Assembly (NCBI GenBank): GCA_963969595.1
Contig: OZ018412.1
Location: 560,501-624,500 of the forward strand
DNA from: Neckera pumila
Lineage: Eukaryota > Streptophyta > Bryopsida > Hypnales > Neckeraceae
Reading direction: 5' to 3'
Length of the DNA: 64,000 nucleotides
Position numbers and translations under genes: made by a program
Notes under the pieces: model-generated
The model's input: only the letters and a program-made list of their open reading frames with translations
Databases searched by the model: none
What the model was told of the DNA's origin: nothing
Shown: piece by piece, positions 795-58,990 of the stretch
Layout of the letters: each line of letters opens with the position of its first letter
Numbering within the stretch: the stretch's first letter is position 1

Positions 795-2700
795 CCTTAA
801 AGGACCATTCCCTTTGGGACATAAATCCGAATATTGGGCAAATACCTAGGGGCTGAAATTTCATCCTAAATTTCTTGAAACTATTTTGGGGATAGAAAAT
901 TTGATTAGCTTCATGGAGTATAATTTTTTTCAATCAATGCCTGGAAAGAAATGTTATGCTTCCAAACAGTGGATCTTAGAAGGAGGGGAGAGAAGGTAGG
1001 AAGAAAAAATTCAAAAATTTGAATTAATTAATTTTTTCTCATAGATTATATTTTTGTCTATTTGGAAAGCTTTGATTCATTTCATTTGGATTTTTTATGA
1101 GAAAAAATCCTAAAAGTTATGGACAATCTTGTTTTTTGGGCAATTTAATCATCTTTTAGAAAAAATAACTTGTAGGATTCATTTTTGAATGCCATTTTTA
1201 AAATTTACCAAAAAAAAGTTTCACATGGTTTAGTTTGCTTGCTAGAACAATCTCACCATTCGGATTAGTGCATTTTCATTCCATTTTAGAGATATTCATA
1301 ATTTAGATTTTCCTTTTATTTTGTGCCTATTTCTATTTAACAATTTTTTGAAGTATGCAAATTTAGTTTTCTTGAATTTTTTTTCCAAGACTCTCAATGC
1401 AATTCTCCACTATAAAGATTCAAAGCTTAAAACTCTATAGTGCAAAAAAATAAAGTTAAGAAGATTCAAAGTCGAATAATCTAGTCCTACAATGTGCTGA
1501 TAATTTGTTTTTTTTCACTTTAACCCCTAAAGTTCCATGACTATGTTTTCATTTACATTGCTCAAACACTGCCATTTTTAGTACAAGTACCCAATTTTTG
1601 AAAAAGAAAGTTTTGACACATGTAACTGTAGGATCTTGTAGTATGTTGACTTGAAAACATGCGATAAAAATTTCAAAAATTTCCATCATGTGGATTGCAA
1701 GATATAAGCATTCAAATTTACTGAAATGATTTTAATTTTTGGCCCTGTGAAAAACAAAGCAGCTACACTACACAAGCTCACTTTTTGATGAAAAAAGGTC
1801 CGAAATGATGGTGCTTCTTTGCTTTCTTTTTCCTAGACAAACTGGTTACATGCTCGAAAAATTTCAATTCATTTGGAATTGTCCAACATATAGGAAAAAA
1901 ATAGTAAATAGATAGTAGTAGGGAAAATGATTCAAAATACTAAATTGTCAAGAATTTAATTATAGAATTGAAAAATGCCAATCCCAATGGTTAAAAATTT
2001 GTAATAAACAATCTACATCATAGGATTTTAATTTTTTCAAAAAATATTGGAAACTAAGTAAGATAAAGGACTTCAAAGTTTATTTTAGAGGAGAGAATCC
2101 ATAACTACCCGCAAACTAAAAGTCTTCATAACTTTTGACTCATTGATCAAAATGGGATGATTAAAAGCTATTCACGTGTATATAACTTTAGAAAACTAGT
2201 TCAAAATTTTTGTTTTTGAAAAAAGTGATTTTTTTTATCTGCCCGAATTGCCCAGTTCCAAAAAAAATAACATATTAGGCCATAACTTTTGATTCACATT
2301 TCCAAATGTCATAAAATTTAATGCATATGAAAGATATTTCTTGCGCCTACTTTCTATAAAAATTTCAGCCTAAAATATGGAAATCTCTAATCAAACATAC
2401 CTGCCCAAAATTTCTATACAACCTAAAAATGCATGCTAGTCTTTTAGGGGTTAAACGCAGATATCTTGCAGTTTGTGCGGTCAAATTGATGTGTTTCTTT
2501 CAAATTTAGTCGGAAATAGATGATAAAAATTCCAGGAAAAAAATTCAAGTATAAAAAAGATTTCTTGTTGTTTGATGCCTCATACTGAGAGTAAAAAAAC
2601 TAATTTAGAAATAAATTTATAACCATTAATCCAAATTCTAGTAAATTTATCTTGCATTTAAGACAATCCTTGCATGCATCTATGTGTAAAATTCCAATTG
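795..2700 (-). mobile_element. TTAA-type element, subfamily A, interrupted copy
   Basis: The left end reads CTAA|CCTTAAAGGACC, a mutated TTAA followed by the family terminus. The interior at 1200-1500 is the reverse complement of 26.95-27.3 kb and 31.85-32.1 kb, for example the shared 'TTTGCACTATAGA.TTT' and 'AATCCCAATGG.GAG' blocks. A second element interrupts it at 1520-2454. Homology resumes directly at 2455 (ATATCTTGCA.TTTGTGCGGTC) but fades soon after, so the far terminus is lost or diverged and the end coordinate given is only approximate. It is non-coding. Confidence 0.6.
1524..2450 (-). mobile_element. TTAA-type element, subfamily B, nested copy (927 bp)
   Basis: It is bounded by TTAA at 1520-1523 and 2451-2454. 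The ends are CCCCTAAAGTTCC on the left and, read inward from the right, CCCCTAAAAGACT. The whole body is the reverse complement of the copy at 32552-33466, sharing 'CATAACTTTTGA', 'AAAGCTTTGAAT'-like and 'TAGGATCTTGTAGTA'-like blocks. There is no coding capacity. It sits inside the subfamily-A copy that begins at 795. Confidence 0.78.
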
Positions 2701-3529
2701 TAACATCAAAAATTATGGTTGCAATTGCTTGCCCTAGATTAATAAAAGTCCCAAAAAACATTTTTCAATCATTTGGAGACTAAATTGCTTATGTCATTGC
2801 AAGTCTAAGAAAAATCCTAAATTCTTTTTTTTTGGTACTAATCCAAACATATTAGTCAATGCACTAGAGACACCATATATGAATTAACTATGAATTTTCA
2901 AAGTGCAAAAAAATAGATATATCGAAAAGTAATCCTAGACTTTTATGGGTATAAATTTTACATTTTAGACAAGAATATGTATAAGTTGATTATGGAATGG
3001 AATCTCAATTTGATGCAGCCACTTTATGCCCAATCAAATTTTTACAACAAATAAAATCATTAAGATTTAGAGAGACTAGAAACGTACAAAAGTATTATTT
3101 GAATGTCATTTTTGTTTTTAGCTTACCTACATTATCCTACAAATCCCTACAATTTCACTTCCCTTCTAGTAGAGGAATTTATAAATGGATAAAATTTCAA
3201 TTAAAATAAAGTGCTTTTCCAATGGTCTCCATCCCTCACTTGCAATTTAAAAAAAGAAGCTCATTTAACAAGAAATCTTTGATATTATAAAATAGAATAG
3301 TCTTAGCCACTAAATGTCTAGGTTTGTTTTTTGAGCTTTTTTGAGTTTGTTCAAAACTAAACGGAAAGTCCAAGTGTTGATTAGTTTTATTAATGTTTTT
3401 AAAATTGTAACCATATAAATCCAATCCAGATATGCTATAGAATTATAGGAATAGAAAACACAACAATGTGATTTTGTAAGCCATTATGGGGGCTCACATC
3501 CCCTTATGATTTTTTTTATTCTTTGAGAT
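2701..3529. other. AT-rich gene-free DNA
   Basis: Nothing recognisable. The short open frames (2997-3209 +, 3236-3424 -) are Lys/Asn/Phe/Leu-rich as expected of random AT-rich sequence. Confidence 0.45.
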
Positions 3530-4470
3530 TATTTACCACTTTGAATTCACAATTAAGAATTGAACAGAAGACATTTGAATCAAAACTTTCCCATTTCATT
3601 CTTGCAATTGTCAAAGTATCATCCATAATTTATGATATAAATTAAAAAATACAAGGTAATGGATGGACATTTAAGTGTGGACTTCTTTATTTGATTTTCA
3701 CTACTCTTGAGCAATCATCTTAGTCATGTATTATGTACCTTGTTGATTTCAAAATTAAAATTTGGAAAAAAGAGATTTTAATTAGAACTTCCCCGGTTCG
3801 TTCTTGCAATTGTCAAAAAATCATCCCACGGGTGTATAATTTATGACATGGATTTAAAAATGAAAGATAATGGATGGAGATAAATTTAGGTATGGAATTT
3901 TCCGTTTGATTTTTTCTATCCTTGAACAATCATCTTAGTCATGTATTGTTTCTCAAAATTTGGAGGATAGAGATTTTAATTAGAACTTTTCCTTTTCCTT
4001 TTGGCAATTGTTAAAGAATCATCCTATCGGTGTATAATTTATAAAGTAGATTTTATAATAAAAGAACGGATGGAAATTTGGTTACAGACTTCTCCATTTT
4101 ATTTTTACATGTTCTTGTGAGAATTATTTATTCATGTATTACATACAACTTTGATTTCAAAATGAAAATTTAGAAGGAAGACAAACTTCTCCTTTTCATT
4201 TTGGCAATTGTCTAAGTATCAATCCCTTAGTGTATAATTTATGAAATGATTTTAAGAAAAAGAGGTCTAAATAGAGATTTAAGAAGGACTTCCCCCTTTC
4301 ATTTTCTCTATTCTTGAGCAATCATCTCTATTGAAAATTATTGACCTTGTTGATTTCAAATAAAAAATCGGGAGGGAAGAGATGTAAAATAAGAACTTTT
4401 CCTTTTTCATTATGGGGGCAAGAACCATCCTAATAGTAATTTTCAAAGAATTATTTACCACTTTGATTAA
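3530..4470. repeat. Degenerate tandem repeat, ~200-bp unit, 4+ copies
   Basis: A marker phrase, (C/G)TTGCAATTGT.AAA..ATCATCC or close variants, recurs at 3601, 3803, 4001 and 4201, giving spacings of 202, 198 and 200 bp. Between the markers the units share 'GTGTATAATTTATGA', 'GAGCAATCATCTTAGTCATGTATT' in shorter variants, and 'TTTTAATTAGAACTT'. The copies are diverged by many substitutions. No coding function. This is satellite-like or an old local amplification. Confidence 0.8.
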
Positions 4471-5892: not shown

Positions 5893-8800
5893 ATGGATTT
5901 GGGAGAGGCCATCGTGATGGGCCTGCGCGTGCTGTGGAGTGGGTCCGTCGGGGCAGCGTTGGTGGGGTTGTTGCCGCTGGGAGCTCTCAGCGAATTCGTG
6001 CGGGATTTGTCTCGCCGGGGGAAGCTCAAATTGGCGACGAGTGCCGAACAGCCACCGGTGGGTTCGATCCCCTCCTGGGCGGGAAGTCTGCTACTTAGTA
6101 GGGTCTTTTGGAGTTTGTTGTCAACAGAGGTTAAGTTAGAGTGAGTGCGGGTTTGAAGTATTCCGTGCCTTGGAGGCCGTGAGCCGTTTTATGCAATTTT
6201 CTATGACAACGAATAGAGCAAGCGTAGCTTTGGGTGGGCTATAATGAGCGATTGCGCGAATGGACACTTCTCTGTCTGCCTGTTTTAGAAACCCTAACAG
6301 GACTTCTAGCGGGAGCTCTTAGCCTAGCACACGTTCGGTAGCGAGCCTGGCTTCATCTGCTGGGTTTTTCGGTGGAATGAATGGGGACATTTCCACGAGA
6401 TGGGGATGACACTTAAACTCTTGTTTGCAACTGGATAGATGTACAATTGTACGATATTGGTGGCCAAACTTCATCGTCCGTTGCTAACAGCTGCGTGTGC
6501 GCTTGTGAGCAGAGGTTTTCGGTTCCTCAGAAATGGTTCGCCCATTTTTATGTGCTGGGAGGTCTTGTGAACTCGCTACTGCTTGCAGTCACTTTCCTGT
6601 TTGCCTATTCCTGCACGTTCCCCATGCAATCGCATGAGTCTCAAGTTTCCGCCGTCGTGGCTCAGTTGGGAGGTAATAAACACTTCTTCTCCCTTTCTTG
6701 TAGATAATGCTTCTACCGAGATGGATGCTCGTTGGCCATCGTTGCTTGAAATAGACCTTGTGATTTACAAGTTGCCTCATGGATTATGTTTAGGTGCGGG
6801 CGCCAGAGATTCCAGTGGAGTGGTAGGCGATGTCGGGCACCTTGCCAACTACAGAGGGCGTGCATGGAGTTCCTTTGTCGTGCTTGCTATGCTGGAGCTT
6901 CAAATTGTCAGAAGACTAAGCGAAAGCATTCATCTTTCTAACTACAGTCCCTTGGCCCGAATGCATGTCCTTGGCTATCTTATTGGATTGGGGTACATTA
7001 CCTAACTCTCTATTCAGTCTTAAAATAACCCAATCGCTTGCTCTTGGCAGACCAGTCAGCGTGTTTCGTTTTGGCACGTAGTTAAGGGTGTACGCAATGA
7101 ATATTCCTCATTCCTCATTCGAAATGCTCAATGTTGATAAGATGCAGTTGTGGATCCTCATTTCTTGAGGTCTAGCAAGATTGATGTGAATCTGATTATT
7201 TTAACGCACTTACGCTAAGATTTACTAATGCAAGCATTCATTCTGGTTCTTAGTTTTAATTATCTGGTAGTGGTTTAGGAATGTCGACCTCACTATTCAT
7301 CATGGGATTAAAGGAACTGTGGAAGCAGGAGACATTGAACTGGAGAGAGACTGACTGAGTGTTTGATGTCTGCGCAGGTTCTATCCAGCAGCATCTCTTA
7401 CCCTTTTCTCCCAATATTTCAAAGATAGAGACTACTTGTCCTTGCTCTGCACATTTGTGGTAAAAAGACTTGGACGCGTTTGGATACTGCACACAGGTCC
7501 ACCTCTCCTCAATTCTCAAATGGAATTGATGGATTATGCGAAGAGTCTCAAGGGTTTGGAAGCGTTTCAGTGGGTTGGGTTGGGCGTTTTTTTATTGGGC
7601 TGGGGCCAACAGTTACGATTACATTCCATACTGGTAGGTGCTCTAGCATCTGCTTTTCTCTTAATAGTACCTCGTCCCCTCTCCCACGAATTTGAGCATT
7701 TTTCTTCTTCTTTTTGTATATTTTCCCTTCACTGATTAACAAGGTTTATGTGTCTTGAGACATTTCCCTGTTCTTAAATTTCCTAGATTGGAGGTTAGGA
7801 TTTTTGACGGATCTATGTAGTAAATTTTAAGTGAAGGTTACTCCTATCTTCGTTGAGGAGTAGTGACTGGTCACCTTTCATTAGACAACGAAGAATAAAC
7901 TGAAAATCTTAAAAATCTCTTGACGAATTTCATTAACTTTTTCAATTTCATTAAGTTCTATGGAGTTAATCGTGTGCTGTAGTGCATGAAGACGTGTTTC
8001 CTTAGTCCTAGTTGGAGGCCACGAACTCTAATGAGGTATTGAGTTTGGGTCTTTTGGCAGGCCTCTTTACGAAGGAAGAAAGCCCGCACAACTGTTGAAG
8101 TCATTTTGAAGCCATCTTTGTCTGCGTCCAAAGGAAGAGCTGATCGATATGAGATTCCACAAGGAAGTTGGTTCGAATGGGTCTCTTGTGCACATTACTT
8201 GGCTGAAGTTGTGCGTTACCTATACCCTTCCCGTTTTCTTTTTTCTACAGCACGCAAATTCAGTAAAGCATTAGAGCCTTTAGACTTCTTAATTTGCGTT
8301 CTCAAGATTCATGCTCCTGTTATCCACTGGAAGTGCTCTGCTGCTATCACATGTTCCCATTTGATGTGCTTTGCTGTATCTGTGGGAGCAGGTGTTGTAT
8401 GCTGGAATTGTGATAGCCAGTGGCGGACACAACCTCAATATCTGGCTGTTCTACTCATGGGTGGTTTGTACCTTTTCATGGATATATCTGATTTTGAATT
8501 TCTTTTAAATCTCTTGTGGCTGTGTACAACTTTATATTCACTAGAACGAATAGCATGACTTGGAGTGAAATCGGTTATGCACATCAGGAATTGTAATCTG
8601 CATTAACCCTTAAAGGTTCACGCATCCCAAAAGTGGATGCGCCTTGGTCAACCTCGATTATAACTTTCAAAATAACTACTTTTGGAGTTTTATTTAAACT
8701 AAGAAAATGAAGCTTGACAAGTTTTGTTTCTACTCCATTTCAAAATGTGAAGAGTTATTGCAATTGAAAGCTCCATGTGATAGAATCCAAATAACAGTAT

Positions 8801-9393
8801 GGTGTATTTTTCATTCATATTTTCTATAAAAAACATAAATAAGAAATGCGTTTTATACATCTATTAAATAAAAGGATAAATTTGGTTTGATAGTCGAATT
8901 TGACTTCAAGGTATTTGTTGTGGCTAATTTGGGTGTAAAAGATAAAGTAACCAATTGAAATTTTTTCACAATGATCTCTATTGCTACTTGTACCTCTTAG
9001 AAAAAATTTCAAATCACTTGGAATTTTCTACTTGTTTTTGCTATTTTTACTTGTTTATGTTCAATTTTTTGCAACAAAAATAATAACAATCACAAATTTC
9101 ACGAAACAAGTTGAAGTTTCTCACAATGATATATACTGAAGTCAAGTCAGACAGGAATTTTCACCATTTCACAATGGATCAAGACGTTTGGGGTTAAAAA
9201 GAGATCTACAATTCTTCCTATGAGATTTGTGAGGTAGCTGAATTGGAAATTGTTTGACATGAGCTGACTGCCGTTCTGTTGTGTGTAGGTACTGAATCTC
9301 ACTTTGTCAGCCAGGGAGACACATGCATGGTACAAAAGTAAGTTTGACGATTATCCTCCATTCAGAAGAGCCATTTTCCCTTTTATTTACTGA
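5893..9393 (+). CDS. SRD5A3-like (PPRD): Polyprenol reductase (steroid 5-alpha-reductase 3 family), 7 exons
   Basis: The enzyme reduces the alpha-isoprene unit of polyprenol to give dolichol with NADPH in the ER membrane, supplying the lipid carrier for N-glycosylation. I place exons at 5893-6057, 6513-6672, 6794-6992, 7378-7633, 8061-8210, 8392-8463 and 9289-9393. All introns are GT-AG and phases agree (0,1,0,0,0,0 except 2 after exon 3), giving 368 residues, close to plant PPRD length. Recognisable family features in order: VPQKWFAHFYV at 59-69, SPLARMHVLGY near the end of exon 3, RYEIPQGSWFEWVS at 289-302 followed by AHYLAE, VLYAG at 311-315, and the C-terminal ETHAWY..KF..YP...AIFPFIY ending at 368. 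Glu344/His346 are the conserved C-terminal pair of the family. Several hydrophobic segments fit a multi-pass membrane protein. The start ATG lies in a GGCCATGG context. Intron 6 contains a transposon. The gene appears intact. Confidence 0.93.
8607..9193. mobile_element. TTAA-type element in intron 6 of the polyprenol reductase gene (587 bp)
   Basis: It is flanked by TTAA at 8603-8606 and 9194-9197. The left end is CCCTTAAAGGTTC, and the right end read inward is CCCCAAACGTCTT, so the terminal repeat is only partly conserved. The body is AT-rich and non-coding. It lies wholly within the 825-bp intron 8464-9288 and touches neither splice site. The family assignment rests on the ends and the TTAA pair, since the interior is too diverged to align by eye. 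Confidence 0.6.
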
Positions 9394-11041: not shown

Positions 11042-11923
11042 CTAGAGCTGGAGCCGCAGCTGCGGCTGAAATGCCTGCAGCGCCAGAAGCGTCAGCAGAG
11101 GCACGGAACGTTGGCACACACCCGCCATCTTGCCCAGCGGAGCCGCACCAAGCTCGTGCTTCCCGCTCAGGATCTGCACGTTGTCGATCATGGGGCCATA
11201 CTTCTCCGACATGCTCTCGAACTTGATCACCGTCTGTGCGCCCGTGCCCGTGTACACGAAGCTCTGCTTCTGCCATGTGATGTGCGACGCAGCGTCCGTG
11301 GCGTTGTACACCGGGTTCTTCACCATCCACGAATTCACCGTGCCGCCTTCCACCGCCGACACCTTCAGCGCCGGCCAAAGGTTGATGGGGCCGTCCGGCA
11401 TGCGCGCAGTGTCGTACTGCACCGTGTACGTCTTGCCCGTGACCGCCGCGGTCGCCAGCGTCGTAGACAGCGAGCCCTGCGTGCCATTGCCCGCGGAGGC
11501 CGGGTTGTTCAGGTGGATGCAGTATGCGCTCTTGGGCGTTTTGGGCGGCATGTGGTACGAGATGCCGAACAGAATCTGCACGCCCGCTCCACCCGGCAGC
11601 CAGTTAACGATGGCTGTGCTGGTGGAGTCCGCCGTCACCGTCGCGTTGCCCGTCACGTTTGTGAGCTCGAAGTCGCCGTTGATGAGCGGGATCACGCTGC
11701 CGGAGACCTTGACGGCGGGTGCCGGTGCGGGCGCCGTGGCGTTGTCGAAGGGTTCGATGTCGTCGTCGCCGAATTGCCACCCCGTCTCCGTCTCCACCAA
11801 CTCCGACTCCATGTTCATATCCAGGTTGCGGACGCCGCTGGCTGTGCCCACCCAGCACACCGCCCACAGGAACGCCACCACGCTCACCAGCCGCGTCGTC
11901 GTCGTCGCCACCGCCGCCGCCAA
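11042..11923 (-). CDS. DUF642 (galactose-binding-like) cell-wall protein, single module, intronless
   Basis: The 293-residue frame starts with a hydrophobic signal peptide (about 1-30), followed by an acidic and Ala/Pro-rich linker (40-73) and one DUF642-type module from 79 to about 255. Family marks are NGDFE at 82-86, NWLPG at 107-111, TYTVQYD at 165-171 and GPMIDNVQI at 243-251, the usual end of a module. Five N-glycosylation sequons (N61, N89, N93, N146, N207) fit secretion to the apoplast. DUF642 proteins are plant-specific, bind wall components and usually have two modules in ~360-370 residues, so this one is short. The tail (273-284) is hydrophobic but ends with charged and polar residues, so a GPI anchor is only possible. 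Coding sequence is much more GC-rich than its surroundings and has no intron. The exact ligand is unknown. Confidence 0.75.
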   Translation of the reverse strand: MAAAVATTTTRLVSVVAFLWAVCWVGTASGVRNLDMNMESELVETETGWQFGDDDIEPFDNATAPAPAPAVKVSGSVIPLINGDFELTNVTGNATVTADSTSTAIVNWLPGGAGVQILFGISYHMPPKTPKSAYCIHLNNPASAGNGTQGSLSTTLATAAVTGKTYTVQYDTARMPDGPINLWPALKVSAVEGGTVNSWMVKNPVYNATDAASHITWQKQSFVYTGTGAQTVIKFESMSEKYGPMIDNVQILSGKHELGAAPLGKMAGVCQRSVPLLTLLALQAFQPQLRLQL

Positions 11924-19040: not shown

Positions 19041-21835
19041 TTTTATTGTCTTTGAACTTTGTGTTCAGGTGCCTCATTGCCATGGTGGATTTTTTTTGCC
19101 ATGAAGCTAAAAGCAATGAGACCAAAACTAAAAAGTTGTTCTAACTGCCTAGCTAAATATACTCTAAACAAATCTAGACCTCCAGGTTGACAGAAGCCAT
19201 TATCTAAGCCAAATTCTTCTCTCGTAAGTATGAGTATATGAACAACTAAGCTTTTGCACGCAATGGACCCCTCTCCAGAAACAACCACTCTTCCTCTTCA
19301 TAAATAGCGGTGGCATTGCTTCTGTTGTTCAACTTTCCTCCTTTGGACCAATCAGCTGAATTACTCTTCTTTTTTCTAAAGTTTGTGCACTAGAAACACC
19401 ATTTACACCCCCCCCCAAACTAAACACATGACCGGCAATATCATGCAGGCAATAAAACAGTATTGTGCAAGAACAAGAACACATCAAACATCTCACCTAC
19501 TTTTGCACTAACTCATCAACAATGCACCACTCAAGAAGTGGAAAAGACTCAATATGAAGCTTCTGTCAAACATTAGGAATGTCAATCCCTCCAAATCCCA
19601 TCAAGAGTAGCTCATCGAGTTAGGTATTGAATGTACCCTTAAATTGACTCCACTGACCACCCTTACATCATTCAGCGCATCGATAGAAGCTAGCAACCAT
19701 TGCTCTATGACCTGTGGCTTGTAAAGAACATTACACAAGTATCAATACCTTAATGAAGACTACACAAAATCAGTAAGAAACATGGTGAATTCTCTTCAAA
19801 ATGATGCTCATGAGAGGCCAATAGTCATGTAGAAAATATAATATGGTCAAAATAATCATTTCAATGGCATGCATTTGATAGAAGATGAATATATTAGGAT
19901 TTATAGAGTTTTAAGAAAGACAAGTTCAGCTAGAATTTAAATAATATTTAGATTCAAGAAACTTTAATCTTGGAGCGCTCCAACGTCCAAATTCTATTTG
20001 ATGAATAGAGGACTTGCAAGCCTTGTTTCATCCAACCAACTTCTCATTCATCCAATGTAATATTTGAATCTAGAAAAGACAACCTTCCTTAATGACATAA
20101 TCCATGAAATTTTGGTAAATGATATTTCTATACAAAGATATGAACAAAAATGTGCAAAAATTCAAAAAAGAATTGAGACCTTTAGGGGTTAATATAATAT
20201 TGCACTTAATGTTACGATAGGTGGTTGTTTCTTGATGTGCTCCCTCAAGTCCACAAGAGAATGTTTGATGCCTCAATAATATAAGAACATTGGCATCGAG
20301 TAGGAATGCCAAAGAAGTCATTCAGTATTCCACCTGGGCAGATTGCAAAAACTTGGAAACCATGCTTGAGTCAATACAATGAAGAAAAATTGCAATATCA
20401 AAGGGATGTCTTTGCATATTCCAATCAACATTCATTGCATCAGAGATTTTTAGGGCAGAGCGCTAGCTGCATTCTATGTATGCAATACAAATTAAATATT
20501 TGTACAAGCCCCATTCAAAATCAAATCAATCATCAATCTATTGTGCAGATGCTCACTGCTGGTGCCACCTGATTCTTTGCTTGGAAATTGGCCATGAAAA
20601 TCAAATAAGGAGAGAGAACAATTCCATTGACATGGGCATCAAGAAAAATTAGAAGTAGGAATGAAGACAATATTAGTCAATCATTCAAATGCAACAAAAA
20701 ATCCATTATTTCAATGTATACGCCCCCAAAACTAAGAATCTCACGTCTACAAACCTGAACAAGCACCAAAACCCCAAAAATTTAGGCTACTCTGAGACCA
20801 CAAAAAGATTAATATGAAAGGTAAGTTGCCACCTCTTCATGAAATTTGGTCATCTCCTAGTTATTAAATAATGCTTGCTCAATAATTACAAGACTTCAAT
20901 GTCACAAGCAAAACTTTCTAAAAAAAATTAAGAAAAAAATTGCCTCAGAAGCATGATTCAAACGCTCCAGCTTCAAATCAAAATATTTGCAGATAATATG
21001 TTGGTACTCTGTCACACAAGACCACTATTTTTTGCTGTAACAAGCCTAAATCCTAAATATAGTACCAACCTCTACAAATAAAAGATTAATATAAAGCACA
21101 AGTAATAAAGATATTGTATCCTTTCCGATAGGTATAAGCAACCAAACAAGGAACAAAAAATTTGGACCCACCTTGATGATCCAAAAGCTGATATACAGTC
21201 ATCCAAAGTCTTATCCAACTTATGAAGAGGGACATAAAATATTTGCGTTGCTATCTGCTTAGATGCTGATGCAAGCTTCTTTCTCCTTGCTGTTGTCTAC
21301 AGTGGTAAAAATCCAGCTGCACAAAAATAGAGTAGTCTCTGATTATGACCGGTTGTGAGCCCCCAAGTTAGCACTTGAGCTTCAAGATTTTTTTTTTTTT
21401 TTTGCTTTTTGATCACATTTACAATTAATTAAAGTTCAAAAGATAGTATAAGTATATTTACATGGCGTTTGGACAAAATCCCTATGAATGCGGTGTAAAT
21501 TGACTAAGAAGTCTGGAAGCGCTCTAAGCACTTCTATATACTAATATTTAGGTCTACTTAAGTGTTTGAGAGAACATTTAAGGGTTGAGATAGTATTGAG
21601 CTCTGATGGCCAAACCATAGAACCATCTAAATATAGACTTTTGAAGGTTTTGACAAGCAAAAGTGCATATGAAAGACTTAGGATAAAAAAATGAAAAATA
21701 GGAAAGAAATCATGTGACAATACAAGTAAACCCACGGACCATATTTATGAACAATCTACAAGTAAAAAACAGTGTTTCTAACTAAGAGACATGTCAAAAG
21801 CGTAATGGTGAAGTTTGATTGCCAGATTCCCTAGA
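19041..21835. other. Gene-free DNA
   Basis: No coding gene supported. A solitary family terminus CCTTTAGGGG|TTAA lies at about 20179-20192, the right end of a TTAA-type element whose left end I cannot find. The remaining frames are short and featureless. Confidence 0.45.
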
Positions 21836-31265: not shown

Positions 31266-31621
31266 TAGTGAACAACAACCTGGAACATGGACGCAAGGAC
31301 ATTAGCAAATGAAGCCATCAACACTTGTTGGACACAGGATACAGTGTACACTTCAGGCTTCCATACTAACTGTCAAGTATATGTGTATGTTTATACTACA
31401 GTAGCAACTTCAAATGGCAAATGAATTGTTGCGCTTGTGTTGAGGAAGACAAGGTTCATGTCAAGGAAGGACACTCATTCATCACATTTTAGTATTTCAT
31501 TGTGAACTTTGGATGAAATAATTGGATGATATTTCTATAGGATGAAAATATGACAAATTATGTGACAAGAGTCGCAACAAGGTTTGTGACAATACACACT
31601 TAATACAATAGACATTGTTAA

Positions 31622-32547
31622 TCCCTAAAGTCCCAAAGCCATTTTTCTGTCAAAAACCATTCAAAACTGCCATTATAGCTGTGTTCACCCAAGAACACAA
31701 AAAAAAAAAACATTTTTTTAGAATCTAACCGTAGGATCTTGTACTTCACATGTCAAAGATCATGTGGTAAAAATTTCATGAAGTTTGACCGTATAGATTG
31801 GAAGATATTAGCATTCAAAGTTGAAAAAGAAAGTTTTTTTGAACACTGACCTGCAATTTCAGCTAACTTTGCCACCGCCATTTGTGGAAACTTTTTGCAC
31901 TATAGACTTTGAATTTAAATTTTTTTATGTTGAAGATGTAAGTTGAAATTCTACAAAAAAAAATTCAAAAAACACACACTTGGTTTTTGTTCTTTAAAAA
32001 ATTGTTAAGTAGAAATAGGTCCAAGATTGAAAAAAAAACTAAATCATTAATAGCTCTTATATGGGATTGAAATACAATAATCCCAATGGTGAGGTTGTTT
32101 TAGCAAGAAAACGCAACACTCTCAAAAAAAAATTATAAAAAATTGTGCAAATTGCAATTAGAAATGAATCCTACAAGTTATTTTTTCAAAAAGATGCTTA
32201 GATTGTTCGAAAACAAGATTGTCCATAACTTGCTCATTATTAGTTCAAATAAAATGAATCAAAGCTTCACATGTAGACAAAAATGTAAAGTTTCAAAGAA
32301 AAAAAAAAATTAAAATTTATTTTGACTTTTTGCAAAAAAAATTTTGATGCCTGCTCAGTTCATTTTGAGGCTTTTTGTGGTATAACTTTTGCTCCTGGAC
32401 AAATTGAAATAAAAATGATATTCCCACAAAGCTAATCAATTTTCCTATCTTATAGAAAAGTTTCAAAAAGTTTCACTAAAAATTGAGCCTGTAGATACCT
32501 GCTCGAAATTTGATTTGTCCCTTGAGGGGACAATGGGACGTTAGGAG
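31622..32547 (+). mobile_element. TTAA-type element, subfamily A (926 bp)
   Basis: TTAA at 31618-31621 precedes TCCCTAAAGTCCC. The right boundary is the shared TTAA at 32548-32551. The interior aligns with 26747-27625, for example AAAAATTGTTAAGTAGAA and AATCCCAATGG.GAG. Non-coding. It abuts the subfamily-B copy that follows. Confidence 0.75.
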
Positions 32548-32551
32548 TTAA

Positions 32552-33466
32552 TCCCTAAAGGACCAACATGCGTTTTTTGGCCGTATAGAAATTTTGGGCA
32601 GGTACGTATGGCTGGAGATTTTCATATTTTAGGCTGAAATTTAATAGAAGGTGGGAACAAGGAATATCTTCATGTGTACAAAATTTCATGACATTTTGAA
32701 ATACAAGTCAAAAGTTGTGACCTAATATGTTACTTTTTTTGGTAACTAGTCAATTTGGGTAGATTAGAAAAAATCGTTTTGGGGGGAATTTTAAAAAAAA
32801 AAATTGGTTCTCTGCATTTAATTATACTTGGAAAGCTTTGAATCATTCCATTTCAATCGATGAGTCAAAAGTTATGAGGGGTTTTAGTTTGCGAGCAATA
32901 ATGGATTCTCTACTCTAAAAAAAAATTTAAAGTTGTTTATTTTACTCAATTTTCAGTATTTTTGGAAAAAAAATAAGACCCTAGGATGTAGATTAATTAT
33001 TACAACATTACAACTGTTGGGATTAGCATTTTTTAATTCCATAATTAAATTCTTAACAATTTAATATTTTGAATCATTCTCTACTTCTTTTCTACTTACT
33101 ATTTTTTTCCTATATGTTGTTCAAATACAAATGATGTGAAATTTTTCAAGCATATAGGCATCTTGTTTAGGAAACTGAATTTTAAGAAGCACCACCTTTT
33201 TCAACATTTTTTCATTGAAAAGTGAGCTTGTGAAGTGCAGCTGCCTGATTTTTCGCAGGACTGAAAAAATGGTTTTGGAGACTTTGAATGCTTATATCTT
33301 ATGATCCACACGGTGGAATTTTCTAAAAATTTTACCACATGTTATCAAGACATTGTACTACAAGATCCTACGGTTACATGTGTCAAAAATTGTTCTTTTT
33401 CAAAAATTTGGTAGTTGTCATAGAAATGGCAGTTTGGGAGCGTTTTTAGTCATGGAACTTTAGGGG
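32552..33466 (+). mobile_element. TTAA-type element, subfamily B (915 bp)
   Basis: TTAA at 32548-32551 and 33467-33470; left end TCCCTAAAGGACC, right end GGAACTTTAGGGG. It is the reverse-oriented counterpart of 1524-2450. Its right third, inverted, resembles the left third of subfamily A (GTAGGATCTTGTA, then a run to AGATAT...GCATTCAAA), so the two subfamilies share sub-terminal sequence. Non-coding. Confidence 0.78.
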
Positions 33467-34884: not shown

Positions 34885-35808
34885 TCCCTAAAAGACCAAA
34901 GAGCCCACTTTGGGCTTTTTGAGAACTTGGGCAACTTCTATTGACTTTATAATTTGGAATTTTTGCATGAAGTTTTTAGAATGGATGCTATTCATCATAT
35001 TTTACATGTGAAGTTTTGTTCCATGTCATTCCAATAATTACTGTAAAAGTCACAAACCTTTTTTTATTTCAATGCGAAACCAGGCAATAAAAAATATATT
35101 CTAAGAAAATACTCGGTATTCACTATTTTTTTGAAACTTTAAAGATTGATACCTGATCAAAAACATTTGAACCATTCAATTTCAAATAATGAAGTAAAAT
35201 TTATGAGAATATTTATTTTGTAGGCAATGAAGGTAGAAAAAACATATTATGTCGTCTTTTGCTCTTAATTTTAAATGTTTTCAAATAAGATTAAAGAAAA
35301 AGGATTTAAATTGTTTATTAGAACATTCTTACAATTGTAAAAAAACACTATAATTAAATTTTCATGCAATTTTCAACTATGTGTAAAAGTTATTAGCATA
35401 TTAGTTTTTTCTTTCATTTATTACCGCCTTCTACTTCATAATTTTTTTAAAGATGAATAGAAAAGTTTTTTTGGTTAAATTTTCTTACATATGTTTCCAA
35501 TCCATTTTCCAGCATATTGGATAAAATGCACAAGTTATAGGACATACATGCTTTTTTCTCAAAATGTTGAAAGACAAAATGTTACGTGTTGGAAGGGCTA
35601 GAAAAGTCTATATTTTAAACTTTAGGCTCATTGAACTTACAATCGGTGGGCATATTCATTCTAAAACTTTGGGACAATGGACTTGAAACCAGATGATCCT
35701 ACAGTTGGATTTGTTAAAAAACAAATATCAATGAAGATTTTGACCTTGCTTTGGGGACAAGTATTTTTAAGCAATTTTGAATTTGTAAACATATTGGTCC
35801 TTTAGGGC
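34885..35808 (+). mobile_element. TTAA-type element (924 bp)
   Basis: Bounded by TTAA at 34881-34884 and 35809-35812. Left end TCCCTAAAAGACCAAAG, right end GGTCCTTTAGGGC. The two ends form a terminal inverted repeat of about 13 bp with two mismatches. The interior is AT-rich and differs from subfamilies A and B, though it keeps similar phrases such as TGATCCTACAGTTGGAT near the right end. Non-coding. Confidence 0.78.
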
Positions 35809-45364: not shown

Positions 45365-48300
45365 ATGGAAGACCCCAGTGGAAGGGCGGACAAAAGATTT
45401 TCAATCCTAGCGAACACTCTAAATGTATTGGAGCAATCACGGGCCAACAAAAGATTACTTGGGAGTTACAAATGTCCTTGCAATGACTGCAAGGGAGGAG
45501 GAAGACCAATATTCCGTTCAGCAATAGAGACACAAGTGCTAGCGGAGACAAGGGTGAGAATGCGAGATCCAAGCCTCAAGCACTCCATGCTAGTAAGTAC
45601 TTCTTAGCCTTCTTCTTCTTTTAATTGTTCCGTTGAATTAGGCGTGCATGTCGTATGATGCCTTTGCCTTTTCAAATTGTCCATCAACCCTACTTGTGCG
45701 GTTTTCGTCTAAAAACCCGTAATCAAATCAGAACAAATGCACATAACCCTCACTGAAAGTCTGATTTGAAATGCCTGCACATGTTGAATTCATTAGGTTT
45801 AGGAAATGATACATGAAGGAAAATTTTTGCTCACTCTGGTATGGCAGTGCATTTCAATTGAAGATAAATAAGTTGTGGCATTTTCCTATACGAACATGAC
45901 AAATTGACAAAGCTGGTATTCGGTCATGGGCAATTTTGTAATACGTCTTCATCATAGTGCTCGTCTACTGTTACAGTAGTCTTCATTCCTAAGTGACTAA
46001 TGTCCCTTAGAAAGTCTAATGAAACTCAGGTTTGTTTAGTGCTGAAGTCCCTTCTACGTCCTATTTGTTCTTAAATCGCCATCAAATAACTCCGGTTCCC
46101 TGTAGGTTGTATTTATAGCTACCTAACCAGACACTATAAGAAAAGCCTATTTTTGGCGGCGTTTAGGCAAAAATGCGTCATGTTTTTTCAAACATCAGAT
46201 GTTCTAAAAAACATATACATGTTTTGCAGAAACATGTATGTGTTTTGCAGAAATGTGTAAGTGTTTTGCAAAAAACGCGACTATGTCGTTGTAGACGGCT
46301 ACGTTTGTGATCATGTCAACTGCAACGTGGCCATGATTTTATATAACGTCGCATACAACAGAAGCTGCCACGTCAGCAAGTAGACTTGGAAAAGGGCAGC
46401 TACGTGGCATATTTTGGAAAAAAAATTAAAAATGGATGGATGAACCTTGGGCCAAATGTTTGGAACAACGAGTTGGATGTCGGATTGGACATCTGAGACA
46501 ACGTAGGCTAATTATTCCATATTGTTTGTCTCACCATGGACAAAGAATGGGTACAAATATGACCCTGAAAATCTTCATTTTCACGTAATTATGTCATCAA
46601 GATAAATTTGATGATAAATGGTAAGTTTTTTTTAAATTCTTGGTGGATTCTACTTTTTTTTTATTGCATAATTTTATTGATTAATTTCTATTGACTAATT
46701 AGTTTTTGAAAAATGGATTGGATGAAAAAAAATGGATTGGATGAAAAATAGATTGGATGAAAAATGGGTTGGATGAAGAAAAATGGATAGATGAAAAAAA
46801 TGGGCTGGAGGAAAAAGTTGCCTACGTGGCCCTGCGTGGATGAGAATTTTGCCTATGTGGCCTCCACGTGCTTTCATTTTGTAAGCTTGAAAGACCCTGT
46901 TTTGTAGGACGTTAGAAAAAAACAAGCCAGAAATTGGCACGTTTTTTGAAAACACTAGACGTTTTTTGCTTGTTTTCTATGACGCGATTTTAGGTGACAT
47001 CTACGTTGACTCTCAGACATGTCAAACCGGACATCATACGATGTTTTTTCAAACATCACAAAAAAGGCCAATTTCTTATAGTGAGAATCACAATTAGCAG
47101 ACACTAATTCAAAGTGTAGGGTCTCCAGTACATATAACCATCTTCCTTTCTTTTATTTTAGGGTTAGGGTACAGGTTTTGCTTTCACTGAGTCCATTACA
47201 AGAACTTCTATCCACCTACATGTAGCTAATGCTTCATTCAAATGGCATGTCAAGTACATGCGGATTACTTGAACGCATTACCCAAGACATTTGAATTGAA
47301 TGCACTCTCCGATAGAATCTATTACTTCAAATGATGCACTTCAAATTCATACAGGTGGATATCGGTAATAGTAAATGAGTTCACTGAAAGCTATTTCCCA
47401 TGTCTATTTATTGTAAACGTTTTTTCTTGTACTCAAGGGGAATTACTGAATTAAATACAGGAAAGGACTGAAGTGCAGGCCATGCCCATGTTCTGTCCAC
47501 TTTGCAAAGGAGGCTATGGATTTCACGAGTGCTGTATGCATATATGACGTGCTCACCCAACTCTCCTTCTCTCCATATCTGACGATGACATTTTGAATTG
47601 TTGTAGTTAGAGGACGGAGATGCCGAAGAATTAAATTTCAATGACCAGCGACAACCTTCAACTCCTGAGGATGCAAACATGGAGATTCTAGATGAAGAAA
47701 ATTTTGATCAAGGATTTGACTTCCAAAGACTCATTGCGGAATGGTTTGAGCGAGTGGATGAAAGAAGACAGACCTCCAATGTCACTGTCAACGTCGATGA
47801 AGAAGGAAACTCTGGCGCAACGAAGTTTGTTGATGAGGCCAACAACCCAGACATGGAAGAATGGCTTCATCACAGCCAGGTATCCCTGTATCACGGTTCC
47901 AGAATATTTGCCCTAGCTTCTGTTCTAGTGCTGATGAACTTAACGCATTTGCATAACGTGAGTAATTCTTTCATGGACAAATTATTCTTGTTCCTGAGAT
48001 TCGATGTACTATCCACCTCCAACGGATTATCGAAGACTTGTCATGAAACACGTAGGCTAGTGGATCAATTAGGCCTGTCATTATCTACCATTCATCCATG
48101 TCGTAATGGCTGCGTTCTATTCTTGAAAGATAGAGCGCATCTCAGTGAATGTCCCGAATGTAAATCCTCTAGATATTTAGTCGGCAGCACTTCCATTCCA
48201 GTGAAAGTGTTGAAGCATTTCCTATTAATTCCTAGACTTCTTCGTATGTACTTATGCCAAGACCTAGTTGCGCTCATGAGTTGGCATGAGAAAAATGGGT

Positions 48301-51249
48301 CCACTTATGGAAAAATGCGATTCCCTTTAGATAGCCCTGCTTGGAAAGAAGTTTGAAACATAGACAGAGATTTCTTTGAGGAAAGCAGGAACAAAAAACT
48401 GGACTTAGGTTTGGATGGAATGAACCTGTTTGCAGATAAGTCCACCAGGCATTCTACATGGCCAGTATTTCTTTTGAACTACAATTTGCTTGGCTAGCTA
48501 GTAACTAAATGTTTCTTTGTCATGTTATCACTTTTGATATCTGGCAAAGAGTCTGTAAAGTCTGCAAACGTAGATGTTTAGTTGGAACCTCTTGTGGACG
48601 AACTGATGTTGCTATGGATTGGAGTGCCCGCGGTTGGCATGTCTGATAGTGCAAATCCCACTACATTCATGCTACAAGGAATGCTATTGTGGACAATCCA
48701 TGATTATCCAGCATATGGATTGATTTCTGGATGTGCCATGGAGGGCTACCAAGGATGTTCCATTTGCAGGCCCAGTGTGGATTCCAGGTTTTCAAAGAAC
48801 TTGCGGAAAAATATTTTTCAAGGTCATCGACGTTCTTTACCAAAGAACCACCCTTTGAGGTACATGATTGACTCCTTCAACAGGAAGGAAGAGCATCGTC
48901 GCAGTCCTTCAAAAGTTTCCAGCCGTGAACATCAAAAGAGGGGTGAGGCACAACAGAGGTAGCTACATGCAGGTGGTAGTGCTGGCTCCGAAAATGACCC
49001 TGTCAAACAGAATGGTGTGAAGCGTCATTCCGTGCTCTTCACTTTACCTTATTGGGACGTAAGTGCCTTATTCTTTTCATTTACTTCTTGAATTTCTTAG
49101 TATTTGTATTTAAAAATTCATATCACTGGTGAAGCTTTAAGAACATTATGAATTGGAGGTGCCCAATGAATTGTATGTGCCTTACCATCCGAATATTGGA
49201 TTTATTTTTTTATTCTAACTCATTAAGATTTGTCTTTTTAATTTCTATGATGTAGAAACTTCTAGTGAGGCATGTATTGGATGTTATGCATTTTGAAAAG
49301 AATATTGCCGACAATTTATTGGCAACATTGCTTGGATTAAAGGACAGGCCGACTGTTCGAAAAGACATGAAGGACATAGGGTGTAAGAAAAATTTGCATA
49401 TGCGGAATGCAAAACCACCTCAAACAGGATTTCATGTACCACAAGCTGCTTATGTGTTGATCCCGGAGAATAAAAAAAGGTTCATTGAGAGACTGCGGAT
49501 CTTCAAAACTCCTACCAGGTACATGACAAACTTGAAGTCCAGGATAGATGAAGATGGAAAAATTCATGGCTTGAAGAGCATGACTACCATGTTCTTCTTC
49601 AACAAATTCTACTTGTTTCTCTCCGTAGTCTATTGCCAAAGCGGATTATGGAAGTTGTTCTTCATTTGAGTCACGTTTTCAAGAAAATGTGCTTGAAGAC
49701 ACTTGGGCCGTTGCAAATGGGCTCTATCAGTGCAAAAGTGGCCATTGCCATGTGTTTGTTGGAACATGAATTCCCTCCTTCTTTTTTTGATTCAATGTCA
49801 CACCTGCTTGTTCACTTAGTGGAGGAGCTACATTTATGTGTTCCGGTCCATACTCGCTAGATGTACCCTCTAGAGAGGTATATGAAGTACATGAAATCCT
49901 ATGTCCAAAACAAAGCAAGGCTTGAAGGATGTATGGCAACCAGCACGGCTATGGAAGTTGCTCTTGGTCTTTCAATTGAGTACATTCTTGAGTGTGAGTC
50001 AACACGCAAAAGAGTTTGGGATGCAAAAGAGGAAAACGGAGATAGTGGTGAGGTTTTGTGCGCTGCCTATTGGATGCGGCCTCTTTCTACAGAAGAATGC
50101 CAGTGGGCTCATTTGTGTGTGATAAACAACTCCACTTATCTCAACAATTTAAGAAAGTGCGTTTTGGATCTAGCACATGCTTTTAGTTCTATAGATTTTT
50201 GTTTTATTATTTAATGGCTTCATAGAATACCGGTCCAAATGTCAGTTTCTATACTAGTGAAGTTTCAATTTTATGTGGCACATGGGAGGACAACATGTTC
50301 ATGATGGAATGTGTTTCTTATGCCCAAAATGTGATGATCAAATTGCAGGAGGCATAAGCATTTGTCAATAGAGAACCTAAATGCCAGAACCTCGTATAGA
50401 CGTGGGTTGCACCCCAGACAGAGACGTCATATGGAGTACCCAATAGAAATGAATCTCATTCTTGATTTTGCGGATTGATTAATGAATGTGGTACAAGAAG
50501 GAAATGAGTTGTTTCCCAATGATGTGGTCAATCTTTCCATAGCCCCTAGGCGCAAAGCCAAGTCTTTCAAGTCCATGGAAGTTTATGAAAATAACTTTCG
50601 TGTTTTGAATTCTGAAGTGAATTTGCTCACTGCTGACTCAGGAGTTACCGTGACTTGCAAGACTTTACAAAGAAGTGTCTCTTCCGATACAAATATCATA
50701 TCAGGACTAGTAACGTACTATAGCAAATTAATGGAGATTTTAGAGCTTGATTACGGGCGTTTGAAACCGGTAGTGCTATTGTGTGATTGGGTGGTTCCTA
50801 TTTCAAGAGGCCCTTCAGCATGTGTGAAAAAAGACCAGTACGATTTCACCATAGTCAACTTCAACAGGCTCATGCAAAGATCTACAAATTCATTTGTTTT
50901 CCCCTTTCAAGCATCTCAAATCTTTTTCTCCACTTCAGGAGAGGAAGCGGGTTGGTCAGCGGTACTGCACACAGATCCAAGGTCAACACGAATTACTCAG
51001 GAGACAGAGTTGGAGGACTTCGCTCCAGTACTGGACAGAGATGAAGCATATGTGGGAGAAAAAATAGATGATTGTACATCGAAAGCTGAAGCAGAGCAAG
51101 GCATTGATGGTAATGAATCTTTGGGTAAACATATAATGGAAGAGGACTTGTTACTTGTAGATACTGCTGTAGAACTTGCTGCTCAACAAATGCTGGAAGA
51201 AGGATCCGATGATGACACACTTTTCAAATTCATTGACGACAAAAATTAA
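45365..51249 (+). pseudogene. TNP2-like: TNP2-type CACTA transposase with DUF4218 and DUF4216 regions, inactivated
   Basis: Exon 1, 45365-45592, is the transposase-associated N-terminus (GSYKCPCNDCKG; donor GTAAGT). Exon 2, 47607-49058, holds the catalytic TNP2 core: YHGSRIFALAS, GCVLFLKDR, VPVKVLKHFLLIPRL, DSPAWK, HSTWPVFLLNYNL, LEPLVDELMLLW, LLWTIHDYPAYG, GCSICRP, KNIFQGHRRSLPKNHPLRY and SVLFTLPYW. Exon 3 starts at 49256 with the DUF4218 part: LDVMHFEKNI, HDYHVLLQQIL, YPLERYMKYMKSYV and NKARLEG. The last part (50482-51249) carries the DUF4216 pattern (TYYSKLMEILELDY, VLLCDWVV, KKDQYDFTIVNFNRL) and an acidic tail. Disruptions in an otherwise continuous frame: TGA at 48354, TAG at 48495, 48579, 48960 and 49858, and a 1-base loss near 49575-49579. 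The intron 45593-47606 hosts a nested element. Confidence 0.88.
46132..47083. mobile_element. Nested non-autonomous CACTA element (952 bp) in the TNP2 intron
   Basis: Ends CACTATAAGAAA (left) and, read inward, CACTATAAGAAA (right), an exact 12-bp match that then loosens. Flanking triplets are AGA at 46129-46131 and AGA at 47084-47086, an exact 3-bp target duplication. The interior has AACATC/GATGTT and CACGT phrases in both orientations, as in 21836-23478, plus a GGATTGGATGAAAAA tandem stretch at 46712-46800. Non-coding; it lies entirely within an intron of the host transposase gene. Confidence 0.9.
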
Positions 51250-55314: not shown

Positions 55315-55317
55315 TAG

Positions 55318-57656: not shown

Positions 57657-57659
57657 CCA

Positions 57660-58246
57660 CTAGATCAAGGGCCATTGATGCAAAACTACTTTCCCCTTAA
57701 CTAACTAACTCTATCCATATTTCCTAACTAGAGTTACAATCCTCCAAAATCCAAAAGAAAGATAAAACAAATTTCATCTTTAGTTTCAACAATTTATCCA
57801 AAGCTAAAGAAAATAAAGAATAGTTTCAAAAGAAGAAAAACAAGATAATCATATTCCACAATCAATAAATAGAGGTGACAGAAGCCTCATGAAAGCAAAA
57901 TTAGCTATTAGAGGAGGCAACCCATTCTCGATTACTTAAAGAATTACAGAATATGGAAATCATTAATTCATAGTAACTTCGTTTTGATACCAAAACATCT
58001 AAAAACTCTAGGAAGGGTCCAAACACTATTGTTGCACACAAGAAAATTTTCTATTGAAGAAACCTTCCTCTTACATGCCTGTAATTCTTGAAGTGATCGG
58101 AAATGGGTCGTCGATCGGGAATGGGTTGCCTCCCCTAAGTGGCAAACTTAGTTTGTTGGTTGAGTTTTTATCACCATCTTCAATCCTAGTTGGAGCCCAT
58201 TGGAGACTACAGTTATGTCAAATTCAAGAAATGAGTGAATTGGCAA
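57660..58246. other. Gene-free DNA
   Basis: No gene. A 92-codon frame at 58054-58332 (+) runs into the adjacent fold-back element and has no motif. Confidence 0.45.
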
Positions 58247-58986
58247 CCCCTAAAGGACCAAGCTGCATTTTTTGGCAACATAGCAATTTTGGGCAGCTCA
58301 CTACAAATGGAGTTTTTATTTTTTTTCTTTGAAAATTTTACACAACATGTAACCAAGGAGTAGTTTAAGGCCCAACAATTTTCATAACTTTTGACAACAT
58401 AGTTAAAAAGTTATTGCATGATATGTGAATTTCATTGGTCGGCGGGCAGCCCAGGCAGCTCAAAAAACTTCAGTAAAAATGACTTTTAAAAAAAATAAAA
58501 ACCTGGAATTGGTTCTTTAGATTTATATAGAAGTGTGAAGCTTTGAATGATTCAATTTGGATCTATGAGTCCAAAGTTATGAGGATTTTAAGTTTGTGGG
58601 GTAGGTATGGTTTTGAAAGACTATACCTACCTACAAACTTAAAATCCTCATAACTTTGGACTCATAGATCCAAATTGAATCATTCAAAGCTTCACACTTC
58701 TATATTATTCTAAAGAATCAATTTCAGATTTTTATCTTTTTTTAACAGTCATTTTTACAGAAGTTTTTTGAGCTGACCAGGTTGCCCACCGACCAATGAA
58801 AATCACATATCATGCAATAACTTTTTAACTATGTAGTCAAAAGTTATGAAAATTGTTGGGCCTTGAAGCTACTCCTTGGGCACATGTTGTGTAAAATTTT
58901 CAAAGAAAAATAAATAAAAACTCTATTTGTAGTGAGCTGCCTAAAATTGCTATATTGCCAAAAAACGCAGCTTGATCCTTTAGGGG
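58247..58986. mobile_element. TTAA-type fold-back element (740-bp inverted repeat)
   Basis: The right end is CCTTTAGGGG|TTAA (58987-58990) and the left end CCCCTAAAGGACC preceded by GCAA, so the left TTAA is mutated. The two arms of about 360 bp are near-perfect reverse complements around a centre at about 58615, for example TATACCTACC and CCATACCTAC facing each other. Each arm corresponds to the left half of subfamily B (compare 32552-32910: the ends CTAAAGGACCAA, GCATTTTTTGG, AAGCTTTGAAT, CAAAGTTATGAGG). Non-coding. Confidence 0.88.
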
Positions 58987-58990
58987 TTAA

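What the first reader, a model, noticed from the sequence alone, without database searches (positions are those of the whole stretch)
1520..58990. An abundant TTAA-target DNA transposon family with CCCCTAAAGG ends
At least eight elements of 587-927 bp share ends of the form TTAA|CCC(C/T)TAAAGG and CCTTTAGGGG|TTAA: 1524-2450, 8607-9193, 26747-27625, 30104-30830, 31622-32547, 32552-33466, 34885-35808 and 58247-58986, plus an interrupted copy from 795 and a lone end at ~20185. The sequence directly shows a TTAA on both sides of most copies and CCC at the termini. A fixed TTAA target and CCC-GGG ends are known hallmarks of piggyBac; Sola3 also uses TTAA. These are non-autonomous, so the superfamily is inferred. 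A large piggyBac-like population in a plant-type genome would be unusual.
Basis: partly seen in the sequence, partly recalled or inferred. Interest (0 to 1): 0.88.

Follow-up and report, generated by a model that had tools for sequence, protein, structure and literature searches.

The report
Large piggyBac transposon population in moss
What is most likely a moss genome is crowded with thousands of copies of piggyBac-type "jumping genes", a kind known mainly from animals, and it also holds full-length copies that encode the enzyme that moves them.

Summary
Six of the 8 window elements have TTAA on both sides (14 of 16 flanks). The window lies in a held 339.5 Mb assembly, most likely a moss. That genome has at least 116 DDE_Tnp_1_7 (piggyBac) domains. 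I read 20 of them at 10 kb: 13 lie in TTAA-bounded elements of 5.4-7.3 kb with CCC-type ends, and 7 of those carry the window's CCCCTAAAG ends. Genome-wide, CCCCTAAAGGACC occurs 13,867 times, 12,107 (87%) with TTAA in front; its reversed control gives 6. TTAAYCCYTAAA occurs 49,643 times against 1,040. Paralogous empty sites show one uninterrupted TTAA. Catalytic aspartates are kept, dN/dS between families is 0.06-0.09 (3 comparisons), and copies in three autonomous families are about 99% identical: an old lineage, recently mobile. In 9 of 11 families one end has a palindrome centred at bp 24-25, where Trichoplusia piggyBac's cysteine-rich tail binds. Known mechanism, unexpected host and scale. 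Nine searches of an open library listed no endogenous moss piggyBac.

The parts
1524..2450 (+). Non-autonomous piggyBac-type element, TTAA both sides, inserted in a reversed copy of the 26747 family
   Evidence: 78% identical to 32552-33466 reversed
795..1523 (-). Right part of the interrupted host copy (26747 family); continues at 2455 to about 2485, left end not found
   Evidence: 26747-family positions 190-839 map to 1523-870 and 159-186 to 2485-2458
8607..9193 (+). Non-autonomous element of a family of about 850 bp (this copy shorter), ends CCCTTAAAGG...GGGG; palindrome at bp 15-35 of left end
20179..20192 (-). Lone right end CCTTTAGGGG|TTAA of a further family
   Evidence: 82% over 226 aligned positions to L016
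26747..27625 (+). Non-autonomous element of the main ~920 bp family; TTAA left, TTAC right
   Evidence: 83-87% to sampled genomic copies L034-L036, L038, L039
30104..30830 (+). Non-autonomous element; imperfect palindrome centred bp 25 at right end
31622..32547 (+). Non-autonomous element of the main family; 71-72% identical over about 300 bp (left) to autonomous piggyBac ends, and 71% over 90 bp (right) to L009; right-end palindrome TTGTCCC-N5-GGGACAA at bp 15-33
32548..32551 (.). Single TTAA shared by two neighbouring elements
32552..33466 (+). Non-autonomous element, same family as 1524-2450 (reversed)
34885..35808 (+). Non-autonomous element; palindrome centred bp 25 at left end
58247..58986 (.). 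Palindromic (whole-length inverted repeat, 92%) non-autonomous element; left flank GCAA, right TTAA
   Evidence: genomic copy L030 is 90% identical with TTAA both sides (L030 was picked by a TTAA pattern)

Best explanation
The window elements are non-autonomous members (MITE-like) of a large, diversified piggyBac population resident in a moss nuclear genome. Autonomous partners of 5.4-7.3 kb encode a DDE transposase. I infer that it binds the CCCCTAAAG... ends and a one-sided subterminal palindrome with its cysteine-rich tail, cuts and pastes the elements into TTAA, and leaves TTAA on both sides. Shown: TTAA outside most ends, one uninterrupted TTAA at empty sites, shared ends, transposase frames with catalytic residues, near-identical copies, purifying selection between families. 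Inferred: which transposase moves which small element, binding of the palindrome, seamless excision, present-day activity, the host being a moss.
For: PF13843: 116 scored of 872 candidates in G000, best E 4.6e-80, 0 of 14 control genomes. Elements with the window's ends and a transposase: L009/10/11 and L017/19/25/27. Sequence match to solved T. ni piggyBac 6x67, E 3.2e-35. Residues aligned with D268 and D346 are Asp in 19 of 19 own-genome cores (near-identical copies included), D447 and D450 in 17 of 17 that reach that far. TTAA in front of 12,107 of 13,867 exact ends; 28 of 29 CCCCTAAAG sites in the 20 piggyBac loci; 18 of 20 flanks in 10 copies chosen without regard to TTAA. Gap-free empty sites reading TTAA for L009, L010, L023 and 1524-2450. 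End homology of 31622-32547 to autonomous elements. Identity 98.8-99.4% within three autonomous families; between-family dN/dS 0.06-0.09 (3 comparisons). Palindrome centred at bp 24-25 at one end in 9 of 11 families at >=0.67 paired, where T. ni has its CRD site.
Against: No movement was observed. For 7 of the 20 piggyBac loci read I found no element boundaries. TTAA is self-complementary, so the empty sites alone cannot exclude that only an inner part of it (TA, TTA) is duplicated; the piggyBac transposase decides this. Only 13 of 36 elements gave any junction-spanning match, some of these do not keep TTAA (L037, L038), and the one for L017 reads TTTG. The 11 copies L029-L039 were picked by a TTAA-containing pattern, so their flanks are no test. 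In the window only 4 of 6 CCCCTAAAG sites have TTAA, and in the random sample 5 of 18 YCCYTAAA 8-mers (a short motif often met by chance). The palindrome was noticed first and scored afterwards; L009, L019 and 31622 share homologous ends; the 58247 and 1524 families score only 0.50 and 0.62. No autonomous copy was seen with the full ends of the 1524/32552, 58247, 8607 or 30104 families.
Confidence: 0.95

Rival explanations
1. Sola3 elements, which also use TTAA.
For: Same target (recalled; no call).
Against: The elements with these ends that I could read encode DDE_Tnp_1_7 and match solved piggyBac proteins by sequence.
Confidence: 0.01
2. PIF/Harbinger (Tourist) or Tc1/mariner (Stowaway) MITEs with TTA/TAA or TA targets lying inside TTAA.
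For: These are the usual plant MITEs (recalled). Because TTAA is self-complementary, the empty sites fit a shorter duplication too.
Against: All four bases are kept outside 87% of exact ends; the autonomous partners with the same ends are piggyBac.
Confidence: 0.02
3. A contaminant or a very recent animal-derived invasion rather than a resident plant lineage.
For: The named relatives found (8, 1) are all animals, at 25-33% identity.
Against: Elements sit on contigs of 24-53 Mb; dS between families is 0.76-2.9, partly saturated; own-genome transposases fall in several deep branches of one clade (34 of 71 rows, SH-aLRT 100) apart from the 6 named animal rows in the tree.
Confidence: 0.06

Closest known systems
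piggyBac IFP2 of Trichoplusia ni
   Same: DDE_Tnp_1_7 transposase with D268/D346/D447 equivalents; TTAA target; CCC-type tips (T. ni tips recalled); palindrome centred near bp 25 of an end (PMC7351741, passages)
   Different: Delimited moss elements are 5.4-7.3 kb (IFP2 2472 bp, PMC10140906 passage); stop-free frames up to 999 codons, with about 400 residues ahead of the domain in L009 (start codon not determined); palindrome seen at one end only and differing in sequence between families
piggyBat transposase (9c0f)
   Same: Sequence match E 1.7e-23
   Different: Bat origin (recalled); distant
Animal PGBD4-like piggyBac proteins
   Same: Same Pfam domain; nearest named relatives
   Different: 25-33% identity; on other branches of the tree
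Plant Tourist/Stowaway MITEs
   Same: Short, AT-rich, inverted ends, thousands of copies (plant MITE traits recalled)
   Different: TTAA outside the ends and a piggyBac transposase in the autonomous partners

Membership tests
piggyBac superfamily | DDE_Tnp_1_7 (PF13843) transposase in the autonomous element | tested here: met
piggyBac superfamily | Catalytic Asp triad (D268, D346, D447 of T. ni) | tested here: met
   19/19, 19/19, 17/17 (2 fragments stop short)
piggyBac superfamily | TTAA target site on both sides of the element | tested here: met
   empty sites (these alone cannot tell a 4-base from a shorter duplication within TTAA)
piggyBac superfamily | Short terminal inverted repeats starting CCC/CCY | tested here: met
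   some copies start TCCC, GCCC or CTCC
piggyBac superfamily | C-terminal cysteine-rich domain | tested here: inconclusive
   Cys/His-rich tails visible in P0121, P0123, P0124, not in P0122; no Pfam zinc-finger hit in any of the four
piggyBac superfamily | Subterminal palindrome bound by that domain | tested here: inconclusive
   A palindrome stands at the T. ni position at one end in 9 of 11 families at >=0.67; binding not tested
piggyBac superfamily | Seamless excision | not testable with these tools
   Needs an excision assay
Sola3 | Sola3 transposase in elements with these ends | tested here: inconclusive
   The transposase found in the readable elements is DDE_Tnp_1_7; no dedicated Sola3 search was run
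PIF/Harbinger or Stowaway MITE | 3-bp TWA or 2-bp TA target duplication | tested here: inconclusive
   Four bases TTAA kept outside 87% of exact ends, but a shorter duplication inside TTAA would give the same empty sites
PIF/Harbinger or Stowaway MITE | Harbinger or mariner transposase in the autonomous partner | tested here: not met
   Partners with the same ends encode DDE_Tnp_1_7

The most novel reading that the evidence does not exclude
Mosses hold their own ancient piggyBac lineage, kept for a long time inside plants, still moving today, and perhaps a leading class of DNA transposon in this genome (tens of thousands of TTAA-flanked ends, roughly 5% of DNA in a small sample; other classes were not counted). 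Its one-sided palindrome, fixed in place but changing in sequence, would record co-evolution of the DNA-binding tail with its site across families and would give a native plant seamless-excision system.
Probability: 0.5. Interest if true: 0.8.

Novelty: new member of a known kind. Interest (0 to 1): 0.7.

Why it matters
[quoted passage not shown] Plant records I met: a repeat table for the fern Ceratopteris with 1,230 PiggyBac pieces, 122 kb (PMC6890710 passage); a 2015 survey that lists PiggyBac among superfamilies found in all groups it studied (PMC4438587 passage; its text speaks of land plants as one group); and a review that names PiggyBac among plant superfamilies (PMC10794571 passage). 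So presence in plants as such is not new. A moss with about 50,000 TTAA-flanked ends and several autonomous families is a natural plant test bed for TTAA targeting and end recognition, and a possible source of a native plant seamless-excision tool.

Tried and rejected
First looked for the window ends within 1.5 kb of the piggyBac domains: none, because the elements are larger than those flanks; 10-kb stretches resolved it. Pairing the 8603 end with the lone 20192 end as one 11.6-kb element was considered and dropped: 8607-9193 has its own family with the same boundaries. Accessory genes: 8 further ORFs of the autonomous elements gave no Pfam match above cut-off. Viral contigs: no match to P0121 patterns. 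The protein search with alignment A1 returned 4 rows; the core-region search replaced it. No transposase piece was found in the window (tblastn with 6 proteins, E <= 0.01). L040, taken as a possible 8-kb element, had no match to the 13 autonomous elements. Whether elements prefer the TTAA beside an existing copy could not be counted: the search did not complete.

Literature: nine searches of the open PMC library; judged from listings and starts of abstracts, none reports endogenous piggyBac in mosses or liverworts. Passages were read in seven relevant papers only besides the structure paper PMC7351741 (PMC10619864, where the hits were the word 'piggybacking'; PMC6890710; PMC10794571; PMC4438587; PMC9860276; PMC12732532; PMC10813416 and PMC10140906 make eight). 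Most subscription journals, preprints and Repbase were not searched.

Full report
What is in the window. The eight elements are present as described. Sites matching TTAACCCYTAAAGG with up to two mismatches number 15 against 1.08 expected. TTAA stands on 14 of 16 flanks and on both sides of 6 of 8 elements; the exceptions are GCAA left of 58247 and TTAC right of 26747-27625. Four left tips are TCCC rather than CCCC. They fall into several families: 1524 with 32552 (78%, reversed); 26747 with 31622 (72%) and the interrupted copy at 795; 58247, a whole-length palindrome (92%) related to 1524/32552 over about 350 bp at 67%; and 34885, 8607 and 30104, which have no full-length partner in the window.

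An empty site inside the window. The 1524-2450 element sits in a reversed copy of the 26747 family. Joining its flanks around one TTAA gives a sequence that runs without a gap along 26747-27625 across the junction, where that copy reads TTGA, and along copies at L031, L034, L036 (TTAA), L039 (TCAA) and L035 (TTGA). The same test works for autonomous elements L009, L010 and L023, which sit inside other copies of these small elements, with gap-free matches reading TTAA; for L017 the single match is gap-free but reads TTTG. Of 36 elements tested, 13 gave any junction-spanning match and 23 gave none; some of the matches are weak, run into element sequence, or (L037, L038) do not keep TTAA. So insertion is at TTAA. 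As TTAA is self-complementary, sequence alone does not prove that all four bases, rather than TA or TTA within them, are duplicated.

The genome. The window is G000:C5:560501-624500 in a 339.5 Mb, 18-contig assembly without a name. A Rit1 gene at 15042-16169 was placed in a tree with 30 of the 120 listed relatives. It groups with unnamed sequences and Sphagnum balticum, the only named moss in the tree, apart from liverworts and seed plants (SH-aLRT 88-91 on the deep forks). I therefore call it a moss; this is inference and the species is not known to me.

The autonomous partner. PF13843 gave 116 scored matches out of 872 candidates, 0 in 14 control genomes. I read 20 of the 116 at 10 kb. Thirteen lie in elements bounded by TTAA and CCC-type inverted ends: L009/10/11 (5.62 kb, CCCCTAAAGTCCC, 98.8-99.2% identical), L017/19/25/27 (7.2-7.3 kb, CCCCTAAAGGACC, 98.9-99.4% among three, about 95-97% to L017), L015/16/18/23 (5.36 kb, CCCCTTGGGGAC, about 98.8%; L023 starts TCCC), L014 (7.3 kb, CCCCTAAGCG/CCCCTAAACG) and L020 (5.5 kb, CCCCAAAACG/TCCCAAAATG). 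Seven of the 20 carry the window's own CCCCTAAAG ends. Seven of the 20 could not be delimited; three of those (L012, L021, L026) have a CCTTTAGGGG|TTAA end downstream. The transposase matches T. ni piggyBac of 6x67 at E 3.2e-35. Residues aligned to D268 and D346 are Asp in 19 of 19 own-genome cores, near-identical copies included, and D447 and D450 in 17 of 17 that reach that far (the triad is named in PMC7351741, passages).

Link between small and large elements. 31622-32547 matches the autonomous ends at 71-72% over about 300 bp on the left and, for L009, 71% over 90 bp on the right. Several genomic small elements carry the same asymmetric pair of ends as L019, CCAAGGCC... at one end and CCATTGTCC... 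at the other. That one transposase family moves the ~920-bp family is inference.

Scale. CCCCTAAAGGACC occurs 13,867 times, the reversed control 6; 12,107 (87.3%) have TTAA in front. TTAAYCCYTAAA occurs 49,643 times against 1,040 for the control. If most elements have two such ends this points to about 24,000 elements (inference). In 20 fixed-position 2-kb stretches, 2,225 of 40,000 bases (5.6%), in 5 of 20 stretches, match a library of 22 small and 13 large elements; the reversed control gives 0. That sample is small; in it 5 of 18 YCCYTAAA 8-mers have TTAA in front, as expected for a motif short enough to arise by chance. CCCCTAAAG has TTAA in front at 28 of 29 places in the 20 piggyBac loci and 4 of 6 in the window. 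The family of 8607 was sampled by body match rather than by ends: of 40 scored copies I took the end pieces of 10 that matched at both ends, and 18 of 20 flanks are TTAA.

Age and selection. dN/dS (NG86) in the transposase core is 0.06-0.09 in three between-family comparisons (dS 0.76-2.9, the higher values saturated) and 0.33-0.79 in nine within-family comparisons. The lineage has been under selection for function, and three families at least spread recently. In a tree of 71 cores (near-identical own copies, and five of six relatives numbered above P0170 other than named ones, were left out beforehand) all own-genome rows fall in one clade of 34 (SH-aLRT 100) with unnamed metagenome proteins, apart from the 6 named animal rows (quick tree, no bootstrap). 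The 106 relatives include no named land plant; its 8 named ones are animals at 25-33%. Many annotated plant protein sets leave transposons out (recalled), so this absence is weak, and the search reaches only proteins sharing short exact words with the query.

A one-sided palindrome. At one end, several families have a 19-21 bp palindrome at bp 15-35: TTGTCCC-N5-GGGACAA (L009, L019, 31622, and 9 of 13 other ~920-bp copies, at bp 15-33 or 16-34), AGCGACC...GGTCGCT (L014), CGAGGACACAATGTGTCCTCG (L018), CGCATCC...GGATGCG (8607). Scored over centres 18-80 bp, the mean over 11 families of the better end peaks at centre 25.0 (0.626 paired; mean of all centres 0.357, sd 0.061). Nine of 11 reach 0.67 at centres 24-25.5; 58247 (0.50) and 1524 (0.62) do not. 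The families are not all independent, and the feature was seen before it was scored. T. ni piggyBac has a palindrome within bp 17-33, bound by its cysteine-rich domain and centred near bp 25. The likely reading is a conserved docking site whose sequence changes with the protein.

How it works, in order. Shown: most ends lie against TTAA; the empty site has one uninterrupted TTAA; the transposase carries the piggyBac active-site residues. From established piggyBac biology: cutting at the tips, TTAA hairpin, joining at a new TTAA, repair without footprint (PMC7351741 abstract and passages). Inferred for this moss: that the same steps occur, that small elements are moved in trans, and that movement goes on today.

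Novelty. Membership in piggyBac is clear. What is unusual is the host, the number, the size of the autonomous elements and the diversity within one genome. Nine searches of the open library listed no report of endogenous moss or liverwort piggyBac (listings and starts of abstracts, passages in a few). Against novelty, three papers place PiggyBac in plants in general or in a fern (passages). Closed literature, Repbase and preprints were not searched.

Noticed in passing
47679-51249: Remains of a CACTA (En/Spm) transposon: Transposase_21 and DUF4216 domains.
   Followed up: no
11042-11923 and 15042-16169, minus strand: A DUF642 gene and a Rit1 (initiator tRNA phosphoribosyl transferase) reading frame; Rit1 was used to place the species.
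   Followed up: partly
32548-32551; L015:2030-2033; L018:2026-2029; L039 and L072 right flanks: Neighbouring piggyBac elements share a single TTAA at these places, as if one copy's flank were a favoured target. The genome-wide count did not complete.
   Followed up: partly
L019:7067-7750: The 7.3-kb autonomous elements hold an internal inverted-repeat stretch of about 684 bp (91-92%); CCCCTAAAAATCT repeats lie in and near it (7247-7918) without TTAA outside.
   Followed up: no
34061-34506: Another inverted-repeat element: 26-nt arms 96% complementary, 394 nt apart.
   Followed up: no
30992-31268: A 25-nt perfect inverted repeat 227 nt apart, perhaps a further small transposon.
   Followed up: no
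42609-43020: Tandem array of a 179-bp unit, 2.3 copies.
   Followed up: no
element tips throughout: The tips CCCTAAAG resemble the plant telomere repeat CCCTAAA (recalled); probably chance, since piggyBac tips begin CCCT in other hosts too (recalled).
   Followed up: no
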